Below the pieces are notes generated by a model. That model ran no database searches and had not been told where the DNA came from. It was given only the letters and a program-made list of their open reading frames with translations. DNA of 64,000 bases. Origin: an uncultured Vicinamibacterales bacterium. GTDB lineage: Bacteria > Acidobacteriota > Vicinamibacteria > Vicinamibacterales > UBA8438. Location of the stretch: NCBI GenBank assembly GCA_958295905.1, contig OY282382.1, positions 3,682,001 through 3,746,000 of the forward strand, in the 5' to 3' direction. Numbering within the stretch: position 1 is the first letter of the stretch; the number at the start of each line of letters is the position of its first letter. Both the position numbers and the translations under genes were made by a program. Shown one piece after another: positions 2,073-61,930 of this stretch.

Positions 2073-2246
2073 CAGGACCATCCCACGCTCCGCCACCGCC
2101 GTGCGCAGGCGGCATCGTGGCGGGTCCCGGGGCTCCGGACGTGCGGCATCGTGGGTCTCACGCGGCGCCGGGCGTCCGGCAAGACGGGGCGCCCCCTCGA
2201 ATCGGGGGCGAAGCCGTCACGCGCAGCCAAGCGTGGGATGCCCCTG
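2073..2246 (+). mobile_element. MITE-like 172-bp repeat, copy A
   Basis: A near-complete 174-bp member of the interspersed family described under Findings. It begins CAGGACCATCCCACGCT and ends with the inverted counterpart AGCGTGGGATGCCCCTG. Internal hairpins include CCGCCAC/GTGGCGG and CCCCTCGAATCGGGGG. No target duplication is visible around this copy. It lies between ndk and the HEAT-repeat gene, just upstream of that gene's candidate promoter. Confidence 0.8.
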
Positions 2247-14057: not shown

Positions 14058-14200
14058 GACACCGGAGCATAGCAGACTGGCCGCCAAAAAGAACAAATTA
14101 TTTTGGCGGGATTCCTTATTCACGCGTTCGGCAACACTGAACCGTCACTTCGCAGCTCCGCTCTCCGACCGACCAGCCCCCGGGGAATCAGCGCCTCCTG

Positions 14201-14306
14201 GCGGGAGGAGGCGCCGTGCTGCCGCGCAGACTTCCTACCACCCGTGTGCCGCGGTAGCATCATCCACATCAATGGGCGGGAGGAGGCGCCGTGCTGCCGC
14301 GCAGAC
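14201..14306. repeat. 31-bp direct repeats at the 3' side of the DUF1552 gene
   Basis: A 31-bp unit beginning GCGGGAGGAGGCGCCGTGCT occurs at 14201-14231 and 14276-14306, period 75. Each ends in GCGCAGACT, the core of the TCTGCGC repeat family seen also at 19777, 44738-44945 and 45012. The DUF1552 stop codon follows nine nt after the second unit. Confidence 0.75.
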
Positions 14307-14314
14307 TCCTATGT

Positions 14315-15715: not shown

Positions 15716-17568
15716 TCGTGGTCTCCAGCCGGGCCGGCAGACGGCCGCCGGCGGAACAGGTCGCTGCCGGCAATCGACACCAGCAGCGTTTTGATGGAGT
15801 CGTCGGCGCGGAACCCGGACCGCAGCGCGTCGAGCCCCGGCGCGGCCGCGTCGAGCCGCTCGCCGAGGGCGTAGCGCGCCCAGTGCAGCACGTAGCAGTC
15901 GCGCACCCGGTCGCTGGCCGCGAGCTGCCGCGCGAAGTCGACGCCGTCGGTGAACGTGATCCGTTCCCCGCCGGCCAGCGCCAGCGAGCCGCTGGCATCG
16001 ACCGGCTGCCCATTGTCGTGCGACCGCCACCGGCCGATGGCGTCGTAGTGCTCGAAGGCGAACCCGGGGGGGTTGATCATCCGGTGGCAGGTATTGCACG
16101 TCCCGGGACGGGTGGCTGCGGCGGTGCGCCCGCGGTTGGTGCTCTCCGCGGTGAGGGTGTCGGGGGGCAGGGCCGTCTCCGCGCCCTGGACCGGCGCGCC
16201 CAGGCGCATGCAGGCGAGCCGTTCCAGCACCCGCACGCCCCGCAGGATGGGCCCCGGCTGCACCGCGTAGGCGCCGAGGGCGAGGACCGACGGCAGGGTC
16301 AGCACCCCCGCCCGCTCCTCGGGGGGGAAGCGGGCCGGATAGAGGGTCAGGGGCTTGCGGCGCCCGATCGAGGCCACGACGAGCTCGATCGAGCGGGTGA
16401 CCTCGGGGCCGTCGATGCGCTCCGCGCCCTCGCCGTAGATGGGCGCGGTGGCGTTCGACAGGTAGCCGCGGTGGTCGGTCATCAGCGCCGTGAACGTGCC
16501 CGCCCCGTCGAAGACGGCCCGCTCGACGAACAGCTCGGTCTCGATCTTCAGCGAATGGCGCACCGGCCCCAGGATGGCCGGCCACTCCACGTCGTCGTCG
16601 CGCGCGGTGGCGAGCCGGGCCTCGATGCCGAACAGCGGGCCGAAGGCCCGGCGGGCGGGCGCGACCCGCAGGACGTCGCCGGTGCCGAGCCACTGGTGGT
16701 GGAAGCGCACGAGGGCGGGCCGGGCCTTCGGGTCGTCGAGCATCCGCCGGGCCTGGGCCTCGATGCCGGTCCGGGTGTCGAGCTCGCCCGCCTCGGCTGC
16801 CGCGAACAGCGCCTCGTCGGGCATCGAGTCCCACAAGAAGTAGGAGAGGCGCGACGCCAGCTCCCAACGGCTCAGGAGCGTGGAGGCATCGTCGTCCGCC
16901 CCCCGGTCCGGCGCGATCCGGAAATGGAACGTGGGCGTCTGCAGAATGCCCGCCACCGTCAGGGCAACCGCCTCGCCGAGCGGGCCGGCCGCCGCGTTGG
17001 CCTGCCAGAACCGTTCGAGCCGCCGGCTCTCCCCGGCGTCGAGGGGCCGGCGGTAGGCCCGCCGGGCGAAGCGCGCGAGGCTCGTCCACCCGCAAGCTTC
17101 CTGCTCGGCCGCGGGCCGCGACGTCCACCCGTCGCAGGCGAAGAACGTCGGCGACACGAGGGCGAACGACGCGAAGTGCATCGCCGCCAAGTGCAGCTCC
17201 TCGACCTGGTAGGACGACGGCGCCTGTCCCTCGGCGATGCCCTCGAACCCGTCCGAGCCCGCCTCAGACGGGAACCGCCACGGCCACACCGGCGGGGGCG
17301 GCGGCGGTGTGAAGACCCCCTTGCTGGGCTCGCGCCGGGGACTGATGCGGTCGGCGAGGGCCGGCCGCGCCGGCCACCGGCCGCTGTCTCTGGGGAAGCC
17401 GAGCAGGTCGGCGATGGTGTTGTTGTACTCGGCCGGGGTCAGGGCCAGGGGGGCGGCGTCGGCCGCGGAAACGTCCCCGGGGCCGCGCGCCTGACCGCCC
17501 GCCGCCCCCGGGGCCGCGGCACTGGAGAAGAACACGACCAGCAACGCCCGCGCGATACGATGTCTCAT
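15712..17568 (-). CDS. DUF1587/1592/1588/1585 multidomain secreted protein
   Basis: 618 aa with a signal peptide (MRHRIARALLVVFFSSAAA). Domains in order: DUF1587 near residues 40-60 (LTPAEYNNTIADLL), DUF1592 (ELASRLSYFLWDSMPDEALF and the LIRFHHQWLG-like LVRFHHQWLG), DUF1588 with a c-type-haem-like CNTCH (GTCNTCHRMINPPGFAFEHY), and DUF1585 at the end (DDSIKTLLVSIAGSDLFRRR). A cytochrome-like redox role is suggested for the family by CXXCH, but no function is proved. The usual N-terminal PSD1 cytochrome module is absent, so it is a short form. ATG 17568 was preferred for the signal peptide; the frame stays open to 17715. Confidence 0.85.
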   Translation of the reverse strand: MRHRIARALLVVFFSSAAAPGAAGGQARGPGDVSAADAAPLALTPAEYNNTIADLLGFPRDSGRWPARPALADRISPRREPSKGVFTPPPPPPVWPWRFPSEAGSDGFEGIAEGQAPSSYQVEELHLAAMHFASFALVSPTFFACDGWTSRPAAEQEACGWTSLARFARRAYRRPLDAGESRRLERFWQANAAAGPLGEAVALTVAGILQTPTFHFRIAPDRGADDDASTLLSRWELASRLSYFLWDSMPDEALFAAAEAGELDTRTGIEAQARRMLDDPKARPALVRFHHQWLGTGDVLRVAPARRAFGPLFGIEARLATARDDDVEWPAILGPVRHSLKIETELFVERAVFDGAGTFTALMTDHRGYLSNATAPIYGEGAERIDGPEVTRSIELVVASIGRRKPLTLYPARFPPEERAGVLTLPSVLALGAYAVQPGPILRGVRVLERLACMRLGAPVQGAETALPPDTLTAESTNRGRTAAATRPGTCNTCHRMINPPGFAFEHYDAIGRWRSHDNGQPVDASGSLALAGGERITFTDGVDFARQLAASDRVRDCYVLHWARYALGERLDAAAPGLDALRSGFRADDSIKTLLVSIAGSDLFRRRPSAGPAGDHE

Positions 17569-17879: not shown

Positions 17880-18440
17880 GCGAAGGGGATGCGCCGGGAC
17901 GCCTGCCTGATGGGACCGTGCTTTCAGGCCCTCCGAGTATCAGTAACGCTTTAGTATACGCCATTTTGGGGTTTCTTGCGCGAAATGCCTCCCGGTGATG
18001 CAGGAGCATCCCACGCTGACCGCGCGTGACGGCCCGCCCGTGCCGACTGCCACGCGCTTCTGGTGCAATCTGGTGCGGCCGGGCACGTCAACCCCTTGGC
18101 CGGCCCCGGATCCGCAGTTGACGGCGCAGAAACGCGCTCCGGCCAAGCCGGGGTAGACCCGGGTTGCTTCCCCGATGCCCGGGACGCTCCCACCTCTTGC
18201 GTCCGAGTGCTTGCGTCCGGCTGCAAGTTGCTGAAAAAAAGTGACTTGAAGCGTCCTCGCTGCGGCGGCGGGGCGGTGGCGGGTTTCTTGCCCTCTTCCC
18301 GTTCGGCCCCGCCGCCACGCGGCGGCTGCGTGCCCGACCTGGCCTTTGGGCTGCCGCACCGACGGCGGGGCCGCGAAGCCGGTCGCCGTGTCCAAGACGG
18401 GCCGGTGACCATCGAGTCCTTGCAACGAGGGGAGAAGACG
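17880..18440. other. gene-free spacer between tRNA-Glu and the ComEA-like gene
   Basis: This 561-bp stretch holds the possible tRNA promoter (TATACT on the minus strand at 17953-17958), a truncated MITE end at 18001, and an A7 run at 18234. A purine-rich GAGGGGAG lies directly before the 18441 start. I see no convincing gene in it; frames crossing it are open but without recognisable content. Confidence 0.6.
18001..18041 (-). mobile_element. MITE-like repeat, fragment H
   Basis: CAGGAGCATCCCACGCTGAC followed by CGCGCGTGACGGCCCGCCCG matches, in reverse, the right-hand ~40 bp of the 172-bp element. The rest is missing. Confidence 0.65.
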
Positions 18441-21532: not shown

Positions 21533-21863
21533 CGGGGGGGCGCGGAGAGGAACGGCGGGACGACGAGGTGCGCGTCAAGGGCGGGACGACGGAGTGCACG
21601 TGCACCCGCGAGCGCGTTAGCGCGTCAGGACCATCCCACGCTCCGCCACCGCCGTGCGCAGGCGGCATCGTGGCGGGTCCTTGGCTCCGGACGGGCGGCA
21701 TCGTGGGTCTCACGCGGTGCCGGCCGGTCGGCAAGACGGTGGCGACCCCTCGAATCGGGGGCGAGCCGTCACGCGCAGTCAGCGTGGGATGCCCCTGGTT
21801 AGCGCGTTCATGAGTGTTGACGGCCGGTCATTGGCGGTACCATCATGAAGGAGTTTTAACGAC
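21533..21863. other. spacer holding MITE copy B
   Basis: 331 bp with MITE copy B (21626-21797) and, after it, AAGGAG at 21848 as ribosome-binding site for the next gene. No other gene is seen. Confidence 0.6.
21626..21797 (+). mobile_element. MITE-like 172-bp repeat, copy B, with target duplication
   Basis: A full 172-bp copy from CAGGACCATCCCACGCT to AGCGTGGGATGCCCCTG. The 10-bp sequence GTTAGCGCGT stands immediately on both sides, which is best explained as a target-site duplication. Confidence 0.85.
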
Positions 21864-22949: not shown

Positions 22950-23066
22950 CCGGGGCTCCGGACATGCGGAATCGTGGGTTCCCGCGGCGCCGGCCGGGCG
23001 GCAAGACGGTGGCGACCCTCGAATCGGCGGCGGGCCGTCACGCGCCGTCAGCGTGGGATGGCCCTG
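22950..23066 (+). mobile_element. MITE-like repeat, copy C, 5'-truncated
   Basis: The right-hand two thirds of the element, from CGGGGCTCCGGACATGCGG to AGCGTGGGATGGCCCTG. The left terminal repeat is missing and the left edge abuts the RNA-like segment. Confidence 0.8.
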
Positions 23067-28629: not shown

Positions 28630-29087
28630 GGTACCATACGCACAGGACCTGCGTGTCCGTCAATCGCGGGTCGGGGGGAACCTTGGCGCAGGTCGAGACC
28701 GGCCGTCCATCGCGCGGGGAAGGAGCCGGCGGCCTGCGGGCCCGTGCCCGACCGTCCATCGCGCGCGGGCAGGGGCGCTGACGGAAATCGCCTTGCCGCG
28801 CGCCAAAGCGCGGGAAACCGTGGACAACGGGCGGCGGCCGGGTGCGGTCGGCAACTTCGTATCGATCACACCGGCTCCGTGACCGTCACCGGCGGCGTCC
28901 CGGCGGCGGCCGGGGCAGTCGGGCGACTCGTATCGATCACTGTCCTGAGGAGCGGACCTCGGCGTTGCAGGGGAGAGCGGCCCGAACCGAGTCGAACGGT
29001 CCGCGCGCACCGCGGAGGCGATCGTCGACAACGGCCGTTGCAGGGGAGAGCGGCCCGAACCGGGTCGAACGGAGCGGCGGAAACAGG
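28630..29087. repeat. short direct-repeat cluster upstream of nnr
   Basis: 458 bp without a gene but with three nested repeat pairs. CCGTCCATCGCGCG is at 28703 and 28752 (period 49). CGTATCGATCAC is at 28858 and 28929 (period 71). A 37-bp unit starting CGTTGCAGGGGAGAGCGGCC is at 28963-28999 and 29036-29072 (period 73, one mismatch). This indicates stepwise tandem duplication with divergence of the spacers. Confidence 0.75.
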
Positions 29088-37180: not shown

Positions 37181-37342
37181 CAGGGGCATCCCACGCTGAC
37201 GGCGCGTGGCGGGTTCGCCGGGCCGCCACCGTCTTGCGACCGGCCGGCGCCGCGTGAGACCCACGATTCCGCACGTCCGGAGCCCCAGGACCCCGCCACA
37301 TGCTGCCTGCGCGCGGCGGTGGCGGCGTGTGGGATGGTCCGG
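37181..37342 (-). mobile_element. MITE-like 172-bp repeat, copy D
   Basis: A reverse-orientation copy of about 162 bp, from CAGGGGCATCCCACGCT to the diverged end GTGTGGGATGGTCCGG. Flanking 9-mers GGCCGCGCG and GACCGCGGG match at 7 of 9 positions, possibly a decayed target duplication. The CCCC/GGGG inner hairpin seen in other copies is replaced by GTGGCGG/CCCGCCAC, which also pairs. Confidence 0.75.
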
Positions 37343-37590: not shown

Positions 37591-37772
37591 ACGTGCCCCC
37601 CCGGCCGCGGCGGCAGTAACGTTGTACCGCCTCGGCAGCGTCATCCCGCTGTGGCTTGGGCGGAAGCTGGGGGCGTACCCGGGTGCAGTAACGTTGTACC
37701 GCCTCGGCAGCGTCATCCCGACCCCCGGTGTGAAGACGTGCCCCCCCGGCCGCGGCGGCAGTAACGTTGTAC
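37591..37772 (+). repeat. interlocked direct repeats carrying GTAACGTTGTAC
   Basis: A 37-bp unit (starting ACGTGCCCCCCCGGCCGCGG) is at 37591-37627 and 37736-37772. A 36-bp unit (starting GCAGTAACGTTGTACCGCCT) is at 37613-37648 and 37685-37720. GCAGTAACGTTGTAC therefore occurs three times, the last followed by TACTATTCCC 17-28 nt before the CHAD start codon, so it may be a duplicated promoter or operator. Confidence 0.75.
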
Positions 37773-49495: not shown

Positions 49496-49609
49496 CACCG
49501 TTCTCCGCCGGACTTGCCGTCTCCGTGACATCCCGGACCGGCCGGGCGCCGAATCGCCGCAACTGTAACATGTTGCAGAACATGCGGCAACCGCGCGCAG
49601 GGCGCCGGG

Positions 49610-49681
49610 CAGAACCATCCCACGACGATACCGGGACCAATCGCAAGCGTCATCTAGCGTGGGAAGCGTGGGATGGCCCTG
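49610..49681 (+). mobile_element. 72-bp mini-derivative of the MITE family, copy I
   Basis: CAGAACCATCCCACG at the left and GCGTGGGATGGCCCTG at the right keep both terminal repeats, but only 45 bp lies between and it is unrelated to the usual interior (ACGATACCGGGACCAATCGC). Confidence 0.6.
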
Positions 49682-49690
49682 TCTCTGTTG

Positions 49691-49863
49691 CAGGGGCATC
49701 CCACGTTGACGGCGCGTGACGGCCCGCCCCCGATTCGCGGGGCCGCCACCGTCTTGCCGACCGGCCGGCACCGCGTGAGACCCACGATTCCGCACATCCG
49801 GAGCCTCAGAAACCGCCACGATGCTGCCTGCCCACGGCGGTGGCGGAGCGTGGGATGGCCCTG
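49691..49863 (-). mobile_element. MITE-like 172-bp repeat, copy E
   Basis: A full 173-bp reverse copy, from CAGGGGCATCCCACGTTG to GCGTGGGATGGCCCTG. It is flanked by TCTCTGTTG and TCTCTGTGC, a near-perfect direct repeat consistent with a 9-bp target duplication. Confidence 0.8.
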
Positions 49864-57103: not shown

Positions 57104-57396
57104 CGGGACCATCCCACGCTCCGCCACCGCCGTGCGCAGGCGGAATCGTGGCGGGTCCCGGGGCTCCGGACGGGCGGCGTCGTGGGTCTCACGCGGCACC
57201 GGCCGGTCGGCAAAGACCCGCGCCGAGGGGGGGATGAAGGGAAGAGGCTTCCCGCGGGCGCGGCTGACCCGATTGCGGCCAGGGGCGTACGGGCGCTCGA
57301 ATTCCCTTGCCCGGGAAGCCGTGAGTAATCTACCACGGTGGCGACCCCTCGAATCGGGGCGGGCCGTCACGCGCCGTCAGCGTGGGCGGTGGCCGT
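57104..57396 (+). mobile_element. MITE-like repeat, copy F, with a 120-bp internal insertion
   Basis: The left half, CGGGACCATCCCACGCTCC onward, and the right half, GGTGGCGACCCCTCGAATCG onward, are separated by 120 bp (57217-57336). The inserted part has its own inverted repeat GGCTTCCCG/CGGGAAGCC. The right terminus is diverged (AGCGTGGGCGGTGGCCGTG). It lies between pilM and pilN inside the operon. Confidence 0.75.
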
Positions 57397-59728: not shown

Positions 59729-60324
59729 GCGGCGGGGCGGCGGGCCGGTCCGCGCCGATGATTCGCACAGCCGACCTCCGCCGGCTGCGCCGGGCCGGCA
59801 ACGAGACGCCTGCGGGGTGGTCGGGCTGACGGGCGACATGGCCGACCTTCGCCGGCCGGTGCCGGGCCGGCAGCGCGACCGGGCCGATGGCCGGATTCGG
59901 GTGTCCCCGATGATCTCGATGCTGCCGGTCCGGTGTCGGGCCACGTGTCGGCCCCGCGCCGGGTGCGGTTGCCGTTCGAGGCGTTCGATGCGCCGCGCGC
60001 CCCGTCCCGCTGATGCCCGGGGACTCTTCGAACCGACGCGGCGACCTCCGACGGGGCCGTCAACGCGACCACATCGCCGACCTCTTCCGCGCGCCCGACT
60101 TCGAACCGACGCGACGGCCTCCGACGGGGCCGGCGGCCTGCGGTGTCGGCGGCTGCCTCCGCGCCTACGCCACCGAAGTCGGCGGCCCGGCACCGACGGG
60201 GCCGGCGGCCTGCGGTGTCGGCGGCTGCCCCTGCGGCGGCGCCCGATGTCCGGCAATGCTCGATATCCTGCTCCTGTCGGCCTGCGGTGTCGGCGGCCGC
60301 CCCTGCGGCGGGGAGCGTTTTCCG
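59729..60324. repeat. GC-rich repeat-dense spacer between convergent pseudopilin genes
   Basis: 596 bp without a gene. Units such as GCCTGCGGTGTCGGCGGC occur at about 60138, 60207 and 60276 with the neighbour GACGGGGCCGG, and CCCCTGCGGCGG is at 60228 and 60300. Earlier parts repeat CCTCCGCCGGCTGCGCCGGG-like and CTTCGAACCGACGCG motifs. The minus-strand pseudopilin ends at 60325 in this repeat field. Confidence 0.55.
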
Positions 60325-61086: not shown

Positions 61087-61155
61087 GTCGATAGGTTAGC
61101 CCAAGTTTACCCAGCCATAAACATAAAAGATTGTAAACAAGCAGCTTACGCCGAC

Positions 61156-61329
61156 CAGGACCATCCCACGCTCCGCCACCGCCGGGCGCAGGCCGAATCG
61201 TGGCGGGTTCTGGGGTTCCGGACGGGCGGCAATCGTGGGTCTCACGCGGCGCCGGCCGTTCGGCAAGACGGTGGCGACCCCTCGAATCGGGGGCGGGCCG
61301 TCACGCGCCGTCAGCGTGGGATGTTCCTG
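61156..61329 (+). mobile_element. MITE-like 172-bp repeat, copy G, with 9-bp target duplication
   Basis: 174 bp from CAGGACCATCCCACGCT to AGCGTGGGATGTTCCTG. TACGCCGAC occurs immediately on both sides (61147-61155 and 61330-61338), the clearest target duplication of the family. Confidence 0.9.
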
Positions 61330-61501
61330 TACGCCGACAGAAATAATCGGAGGGGCACTACGGACGTGCCTAACCGGTGAGAGGGGTCGGTCAGATGAGC
61401 GTCTTGCGGACGCCCCCGGGACGCGGGTCGACGCCGAGTTGGCAGCGCTGCGTTGCTCGTCGGGTTCGTCGGATACCCAGGTCCGGTACCCACGCGGCCG
61501 T

Positions 61502-61690: not shown

Positions 61691-61930
61691 GGCGGCGCGC
61701 GGCGGCGCCGGCGCCGATGCGATGGAGCCGACGTCCCGAAGCTCAGCGGGGCGATGAGGGCTGGCGGCGCGCGGCGGCGCCGGCGCCGATGCGACCGCGC
61801 CGCGGAGACGGTATCGGTCCTACCGCGATGGGAAGACGCCGCCGTCGATGCCGCCGACGGGTGAAGATACGGCTGGCGGCGCGCGGCGGTACCGGCGCCG
61901 ATGCGACCGCGCCGCGGAGACGGTATCGTC
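61691..61930 (-). repeat. tandem copies of the symporter gene 3' end
   Basis: GGCGGCGCGCGGCGG starts units at 61691, 61763 and 61875. The last continues into the symporter stop at 61931. In the 61763 unit the reverse frame ends GIDGGVFPSR and a stop, against RIDGGVSPSR in the gene, so the gene end including its stop has been copied downstream. Confidence 0.75.

What the first reader, a model, noticed from the sequence alone, without database searches (positions are those of the whole stretch)
61156..61329. Interspersed ~172-bp element with 17-bp inverted termini and 9-10-bp target duplications
Copies A (2073), B (21626), C (22950, truncated), D (37181), E (49691), F (57104, interrupted), G (61156), with fragments H (18001) and I (49610), all lie between genes. 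Ends are CAGGACCATCCCACGCT and its inverse. Copy G is bracketed by TACGCCGAC, copy B by GTTAGCGCGT, copy E by TCTCTGTTG/TCTCTGTGC. The interior can fold into several hairpins. This is seen directly. The interpretation as a non-autonomous transposable element mobilised by an unseen transposase is inference. No IS in the window has these ends (its IS ends are GGAATC), and the density is about one per 8 kb.
Basis: partly seen in the sequence, partly recalled or inferred. Interest (0 to 1): 0.82.

Follow-up and report, generated by a model that had tools for sequence, protein, structure and literature searches.

The report
Jumping DNA peppered with CRISPR spacers
A small, non-coding jumping element present in hundreds of copies in one bacterial genome contains a spot where CRISPR-sized pieces of other DNA were inserted again and again, and the same kind of scar lies scattered elsewhere in that genome, as if its CRISPR memory-writing machinery often misses its proper target.

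Summary
The window has five near-complete copies, two damaged ones and two fragments; genome-wide there are about 590 terminal motifs against 14 in the control, so roughly 300 copies. Of 100 full-length copies, 76 have a 9-10-bp target duplication with at most one mismatch, against 1% by chance. It is a non-autonomous, MITE-like element; its transposase was not found.

The unexpected part is inside. A 36-bp stretch (61243-61278 in copy G) is duplicated around a different 35-40-bp insert in 10 other copies. The same architecture (36-37-bp duplication, about 36-bp insert, period 73±2) occurs at unrelated sites across the chromosome: 55 events in 1.69 Mb, six in this window. A control genome of the order showed none in 400 kb. 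Two events have empty sites in relatives. The dimensions match the resident type I-G CRISPR arrays, and one insert shares 25 of 26 bp with an array spacer. I read this as off-target spacer integration by Cas1-Cas2, with the element as a hot spot; the agent is inferred, and no protospacer was found.

The parts
61156..61329 (+). copy G of the MITE-like element (174 bp)
61147..61155 (+). target duplication of copy G, left (TACGCCGAC)
   Evidence: exact 9 of 9
61330..61338 (+). target duplication of copy G, right
61243..61278 (+). 36-bp internal stretch R, unoccupied in copy G; in 10 other copies it is duplicated around a unique 35-40-bp insert
2073..2246 (+). copy A, full length, no target duplication seen
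21626..21797 (+). copy B, with exact 10-bp target duplication GTTAGCGCGT (21616-21625 / 21798-21807)
22952..23066 (+). copy C, truncated (element positions 57-174)
37181..37340 (-). copy D, 7 of 9 target duplication; inside a called gene
49691..49863 (-). copy E, 7 of 9 target duplication
57106..57386 (+). copy F, interrupted by about 120 bp
18001..18039 (-). fragment H, one end only
49610..49681 (-). fragment I: separate 72-bp mini-element with the same ends; its interior aligns with the IS-like end found in MAG CO36386bin_12 (score 17, none of 1000 shuffles as high)
14200..14307 (.). isolated duplication-insertion event (repeat 33, period 75)
28963..29072 (.). isolated duplication-insertion event (repeat 37, insert 36), inside a called gene
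37613..37720 (.). isolated duplication-insertion event (repeat 36, insert 36)
60026..60132 (.). duplication-insertion event, first of three overlapping ones (34/73)
60121..60229 (.). duplication-insertion event, second of three (37/72)
60206..60311 (.). duplication-insertion event, third of three (34/72)
61691..61794 (.). possible event (32/72) beside a larger tandem duplication; left out of the 55

Best explanation
Two processes are layered here. (1) A non-autonomous element of about 174 bp with 17-bp inverted ends was spread to about 300 copies by a transposase acting in trans. Most insertions duplicated 9-10 bp of target (shown); the transposase is inferred and now absent or unrecognised. 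(2) The cell's CRISPR adaptation machinery, most likely Cas1-Cas2 (with Cas4) of a resident type I-G system, has repeatedly integrated prespacers outside its arrays. Each integration leaves 36-37 bp of the target on both sides of a piece of mostly 34-40 bp whose source was not found in the quarter of the genome that I held. It happens at many unrelated chromosomal sites, and the 36-bp stretch R of the element is a preferred landing site hit again and again at the same two boundaries. The architecture, boundaries, dimensions and two empty sites are shown. Cas1-Cas2 as the agent is inferred from the match in size to arrays A1/A2, from two type I-G adaptation modules, and from an insert that shares its target with an array spacer.
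For: MITE side; filled/empty pair. Spacer side: 10 elements carry R - insert - R with the same 36-bp boundaries and 10 different inserts of 35-40 bp. In three (36197, 940466 and, with one further difference, 1862636) both copies of R share that element's private variants, so R was duplicated in place. Genome-wide, of 34 isolated direct repeats of 34-39 bp, 29 have period 70-77 (binomial p 4e-26 for a uniform period). The 55 events have mean period 73.0, sd 1.8. In the 31 with repeat length 36-38, insert lengths fit array A1 (KS p 0.31) better than A2 (0.002) or A3 (0.05). A1 repeats are 37 bp and A2 repeats 36 bp. Type I-G cas genes lie beside A1, and a Cas4g/Cas1g fusion lies on one side of A2, beyond an inserted multi-copy segment. 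The insert at 940465 matches an A3 spacer at 25 of 26 bp (score 23.8; best of 240 null scores 17.0). The A1-linked cas3 gene of this genome carries a 24-codon R-S-R, and the G018 homologue lacks exactly 24 residues there; joined flanks align across the junction in G018 and G012. A second event (4747599) is a 72-bp gap in same-genus G002. Controls: 0 events in 400 kb of G027; 1 in 210 kb of G001+G002.
Against: No sequence motif at 36 sites outside R (information 5.5 bits, null 6.3±0.7) and no hairpin excess (p 0.53). R does not resemble the array repeats (A1: 15 matches, null mean 15.6; A2: 16 against 14.7, 27% of shuffles as good), and the leader-like sequence beside R is not significant (A1: score 12, 95% of null 14). 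Only one insert clearly matches an array spacer; two more (1150990 at 18.6, 4016207 at 18.4) barely pass the best null of 17.0, and the second looks low-complexity. A BLAST hit of the 940465 insert to an A1 spacer too has E 0.002, no better than chance hits in that search, and four of its 25 bases lie in the array repeat. The Cas1 beside A1 scores best with the type I-C model, below its cut-off. Four exact-pattern scans of viral contigs found no protospacer. G002 shows one event and a possible shorter second although no Cas4g/Cas1g was found in it; that MAG is in 440 contigs and other Cas1 types were not sought in it.
Confidence: 0.82

Rival explanations
1. The 36-bp stretch R is a relic or domesticated CRISPR repeat: the element captured a repeat, perhaps with a leader, of a lost CRISPR system, so integration at R is on-target for another integrase.
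For: Exact recurrent boundaries in 10 copies and far more hits at R than at any other site seen.
Against: R has no significant similarity to the A1 or A2 repeat, no R-like unit was seen outside the element in the DNA held, and the same architecture occurs at unrelated sites.
Confidence: 0.15
2. The duplication-insertion units come from an unknown repair or template-switching process, or from an unknown small integrating element with a 36-bp target duplication, and have nothing to do with CRISPR.
For: No motif, no leader, no protospacer found; one unit in G002, where no Cas4g/Cas1g was found.
Against: Constant duplication and insert size equal to the resident arrays; inserts with no full-length source in 1.69 Mb of the genome, apart from one event in a dispersed-repeat family; one insert shared with an array spacer.
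Confidence: 0.1
3. The 242-249-bp copies are only internal recombinants of an ordinary MITE.
For: Other internal rearrangements exist, such as a 441-bp copy made of repeated element segments.
Against: The inserts in the R-S-R copies are not element sequence and differ in every copy; the same units occur in DNA without the element.
Confidence: 0.03

Closest known systems
Bacterial MITEs (miniature inverted-repeat transposable elements)
   Same: Short, non-coding, inverted ends, fixed target duplication, hundreds of copies, a filled and an empty site.
   Different: Carries a recurrent spacer-integration site; partner IS not identified.
Non-canonical spacer integration / neo-CRISPR loci (Nivala, Shipman and Church 2018, Nat Microbiol 3:310; not held; known here from passages of citing papers)
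   Same: Spacer integration outside arrays (citing passages); the repeat-length target duplication is my recollection of that work.
   Different: The citing passages speak of Cas1-Cas2 overexpression and of IHF-like motifs. Here many events are fixed in a natural genome, in a type I-G context, with a transposable element as hot spot.
Type I-G CRISPR adaptation (Cas4/1; PMC10274657, passages read)
   Same: Same subtype; in vitro 80-90% of leader-side and 60-70% of spacer-side integrations were at the correct site, so some mis-siting is known.
   Different: That assay used a plasmid with leader and one repeat; the text holds no 'off-target', and I read passages only.

Membership tests
MITE | terminal inverted repeats | tested here: met
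   17-bp ends; 590 end matches against 14 control
MITE | fixed-size target duplication | tested here: met
   76 of 100 copies at up to 1 mismatch, 9 or 10 bp
MITE | small, non-coding | tested here: met
   106 full-length copies of 151-176 bp, too short for a transposase; coding capacity not tested otherwise
MITE | empty sites | tested here: met
   one: 5729112, near the end of an ISKra4-like transposase gene, against G023
MITE | autonomous partner with the same ends | tested here: inconclusive
   IS-like end at four contig ends of MAG CO36386bin_12, interior not assembled
ISAs1 family derivative | ISAs1-type transposase in this genome or its family | tested here: not met
   PF13808: 0 of 28 family genomes, own included; the resemblance of ends and duplication length is recalled
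neo-CRISPR / off-target spacer integration | duplication of repeat length around the insert | tested here: met
   mode 37, then 36 bp; range 32-41, ends partly worn
neo-CRISPR / off-target spacer integration | insert of spacer length | tested here: met
   KS against A1 spacers p 0.31
neo-CRISPR / off-target spacer integration | inserts from the same invaders as array spacers | tested here: inconclusive
   1 of 60 clear, 2 borderline; 0 of 4 patterns in viral contigs
neo-CRISPR / off-target spacer integration | integrase genes in the genome | tested here: met
   three Cas1, one in a type I-G operon and one Cas4g/Cas1g fusion
neo-CRISPR / off-target spacer integration | integration by the named Cas1-Cas2 | not testable with these tools
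   needs an assay
functional CRISPR array | leader beside the repeat | tested here: not met
   no significant A1-leader-like sequence beside R
functional CRISPR array | processed crRNA | not testable with these tools
   needs RNA data

The most novel reading that the evidence does not exclude
The element is a mobile CRISPR seed: transposition scatters a preferred Cas1-Cas2 landing site over the chromosome, and the cell holds a distributed spacer memory of roughly 190 off-array spacers (26 in 864 kb, extrapolated) beside 385 counted in its arrays, some of which might be expressed and functional.
Probability: 0.12. Interest if true: 0.95.

Novelty: new variant of a known kind. Interest (0 to 1): 0.78.

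Why it matters
How CRISPR arrays arise anew, and what keeps Cas1-Cas2 on target, are open questions for which I know mainly laboratory overexpression work (recalled, and citing passage). A natural genome with dozens of fixed events of graded age (0-5 mismatches between repeat copies), including an in-frame one in its own cas3 gene, and a transposable element with a repeatedly hit site in about 130 similar copies, is a ready-made natural experiment on target choice. It also warns that single repeat-spacer-repeat units in a genome may be scars, not arrays.

Tried and rejected
ISAs1 partner: PF13808 negative. The element in other genomes: among 161 other genomes of the order, exact end matches occur four times in G012 (IS-like ends, not this element) and once each in G023, G146 and G148 (the one in G023 lies in an unrelated gene; the other two were not examined). 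The 40-genome blastn (own genome included) gave two weak matches elsewhere, in unrelated sequence. End motif in viral contigs: five hits in one homologous stretch; the record I read (L145) looks like ordinary phage genes by eye. Plasmids: one weak partial match for the element, none for the IS end. The phage collection was not searched. The multi-copy segment of about 5 kb that carries two tandem copies is not the autonomous element; it holds an ISKra4 transposase and passenger genes. Leader mimicry beside R, sequence motif and hairpin preference: not significant; a slight in-register resemblance of off-target sites to array repeats (p about 0.02) is not pressed. Self origin of inserts: no full-length match in the held 1.69 Mb, except for event 3887092 (86% over 36 bp, a dispersed-repeat family). 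Event 162176 was dropped because no element ends were found round it. Eight candidates in tandem or repeated families were dropped before the count of 55, window 61691 and 52620 among them. R-S-R copies 862763, 1862636 and 3336771 came from a targeted pattern search; without them 7 of 132 R sites in the held DNA are occupied (extra copies of the multi-copy segment counted). Six of 106 full-length copies were left out of the target-duplication count (extra copies of the multi-copy segment, or no flank). My notes give fragment I as 49609-49681, 73 bp, and A3 as type III-B; the recount is 49610-49681, 72 bp, and the type of A3 was not tested.

Full report
Observation. The element is real. Copy G lies at 61156-61329, and the other listed copies and fragments were found where stated, except that fragment I is a separate 72-bp mini-element. 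The end motif occurs 291+299 times in the 6.3-Mb genome at up to two mismatches, against 8+6 for the reversed motif. In 864 contiguous kb an HMM finds 45 stretches, 33 of them full length. Of 100 full-length copies with usable flanks (six of 106 dropped), 76 have a 9- or 10-bp target duplication with at most one mismatch, against 208 of 20,000 random pairings. One copy, near the 3' end of an ISKra4-like transposase gene, has an empty counterpart in G023.

Origin and partner. Among 162 genomes of the order searched for exact ends, only this one has the element. G012 has four end matches and three others one each. G012 is the MAG Acidobacteria bacterium CO36386bin_12 (I recall the project as sponge-derived but did not confirm it). 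There, four contigs end 51-55 bases into a common sequence that starts with the same ends, as an IS longer than the assembly k-mer would cause. No other contig of the bin holds it. Fragment I in the window aligns with that sequence inside its ends too (score 17; mean of 1000 shuffles 7, none as high). PF13808, the ISAs1-associated domain, was found in none of 28 family genomes, this one included, so the partner family is unknown. Nine pairs of full-length copies lie in tandem, eight of them 8-12 bp apart; in those eight the same 8-10 bp lies before, between and after the two copies, exactly or nearly so. Tandem partners are 0.90-0.99 identical, random pairs 0.91±0.03.

The inside. About one copy in twenty is 242-249 bp long instead of 174. 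The extra length is a second copy of a 36-bp stretch, R, plus 35-40 bp that differ in each element (10 elements, 10 inserts; three came from a targeted search, and without them 7 of 132 R sites are occupied). The boundaries of R are the same each time. In 36197 and 940466 both R copies carry the private variants of that element, so the second R was made in place.

Genome-wide. A search for direct repeats 40-130 bp apart in 1.69 Mb shows the same units away from the element: of 34 isolated repeats of 34-39 bp, 29 have period 70-77. Counting clustered ones and leaving out the arrays and eight repeat families gives 55 events, 8 with R-like repeats and 47 with other repeats, two of those at the ends of element copies. 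In the contiguous 864 kb there are 26, about 190 if extrapolated to the whole genome; parts of the other held DNA were chosen for density of the element. Six of the 55 lie in this window, three of them overlapping at 60026-60311, and a weaker seventh (61691) was left out. By a crude gene caller 32 of 55 are clear of genes against 21% expected, and 19 are inside against 70%. Controls with the same thresholds: none in 400 kb of G027 (its length fits Luteitalea pratensis as I recall it); none in 108 kb of G001; one in 102 kb of G002, plus a shorter unit of the same period.

Empty sites. The A1-linked cas3 gene contains a unit of period 72 (24 codons) and stays open. The G018 homologue lacks exactly 24 residues there, and the joined flanks align across the junction in G018 and G012. 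A second unit, at 4747599, corresponds to a 72-bp gap in same-genus G002. Joined-flank queries crossed the junction for only these two events and one element copy, because few orthologous stretches were held.

Link to CRISPR. The genome has three Cas1 genes. Array A1 has 199 repeats of 37 bp beside a type I-G operon (cas2, cas1, cas4, cas3, csb2, csb1); its Cas1 itself scores best with the type I-C model, below the cut-off. Array A2 has 88 repeats of 36 bp, with a Cas4g/Cas1g fusion (over its cut-off) on one side. A3 has a repeat of about 28 bp and about 100 spacers, and its type was not tested. Event dimensions fit A1 best. Among 60 inserts compared with 385 array spacers, one (940465, inside the element) matches an A3 spacer at 25 of 26 bp, far above 240 null comparisons; two others only just exceed the null. 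No protospacer was found in viral contigs with four patterns.

What I conclude. The element is a MITE-like transposable element. Independently, spacer-sized DNA has been integrated many times outside the arrays with repeat-sized duplications, and the element's R is a hot spot. Cas1-Cas2 of a type I-G system is the best-supported agent. Why R is preferred is unexplained: it resembles neither I-G array repeat, and the sequence beside it is not significantly leader-like. Integration outside arrays is known from overexpression of Cas1-Cas2 (Nivala et al. 2018, through citing passages), and mis-sited integration is reported for a type I-G Cas4/1 in vitro (PMC10274657, passages). In the listings I saw no report of a natural genome with many such events or of a MITE as a spacer landing site; the library lacks most subscription journals, and I read passages of few of the listed papers.

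Noticed in passing
L017-L021 and L150 (G000 C1 near 3455000, 3486000, 5605000, 1273000, 40000, 5246000): A segment of about 5 kb with an ISKra4 transposase and other genes (one citrate-synthase-like by eye) is present in five near-identical places, with at least part of it also beside array A2; in the five it carries two tandem copies of the element.
   Followed up: partly
L150, G000 C1 5237338-5237877: Three duplication-insertion units lie within about 600 bp just outside the end of array A2 that is farther from its Cas4g/Cas1g gene.
   Followed up: partly
L110 about 16402-16511 (G000 C1 4002403): The type I-G cas3 gene itself carries an in-frame 72-bp duplication-insertion and stays open.
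   Followed up: yes
L050 10946-11386: A 441-bp element copy made of repeated internal segments with one 9-bp target duplication.
   Followed up: no
L174 (G000 C1 about 1862600): One element copy has two duplication-insertions at different places: one at R and one with a repeat of about 23 bp at period about 74 (by eye).
   Followed up: partly
G000 C2 41448-42179: A partial Cas4g/Cas1g match with an internal stop on another contig of the genome.
   Followed up: no
G000 C1, for example 3106696, 3192501, 4064117, 4301542: A second dispersed family of about 83-bp tandem units; similar sequence appears to occur in same-genus contigs.
   Followed up: no
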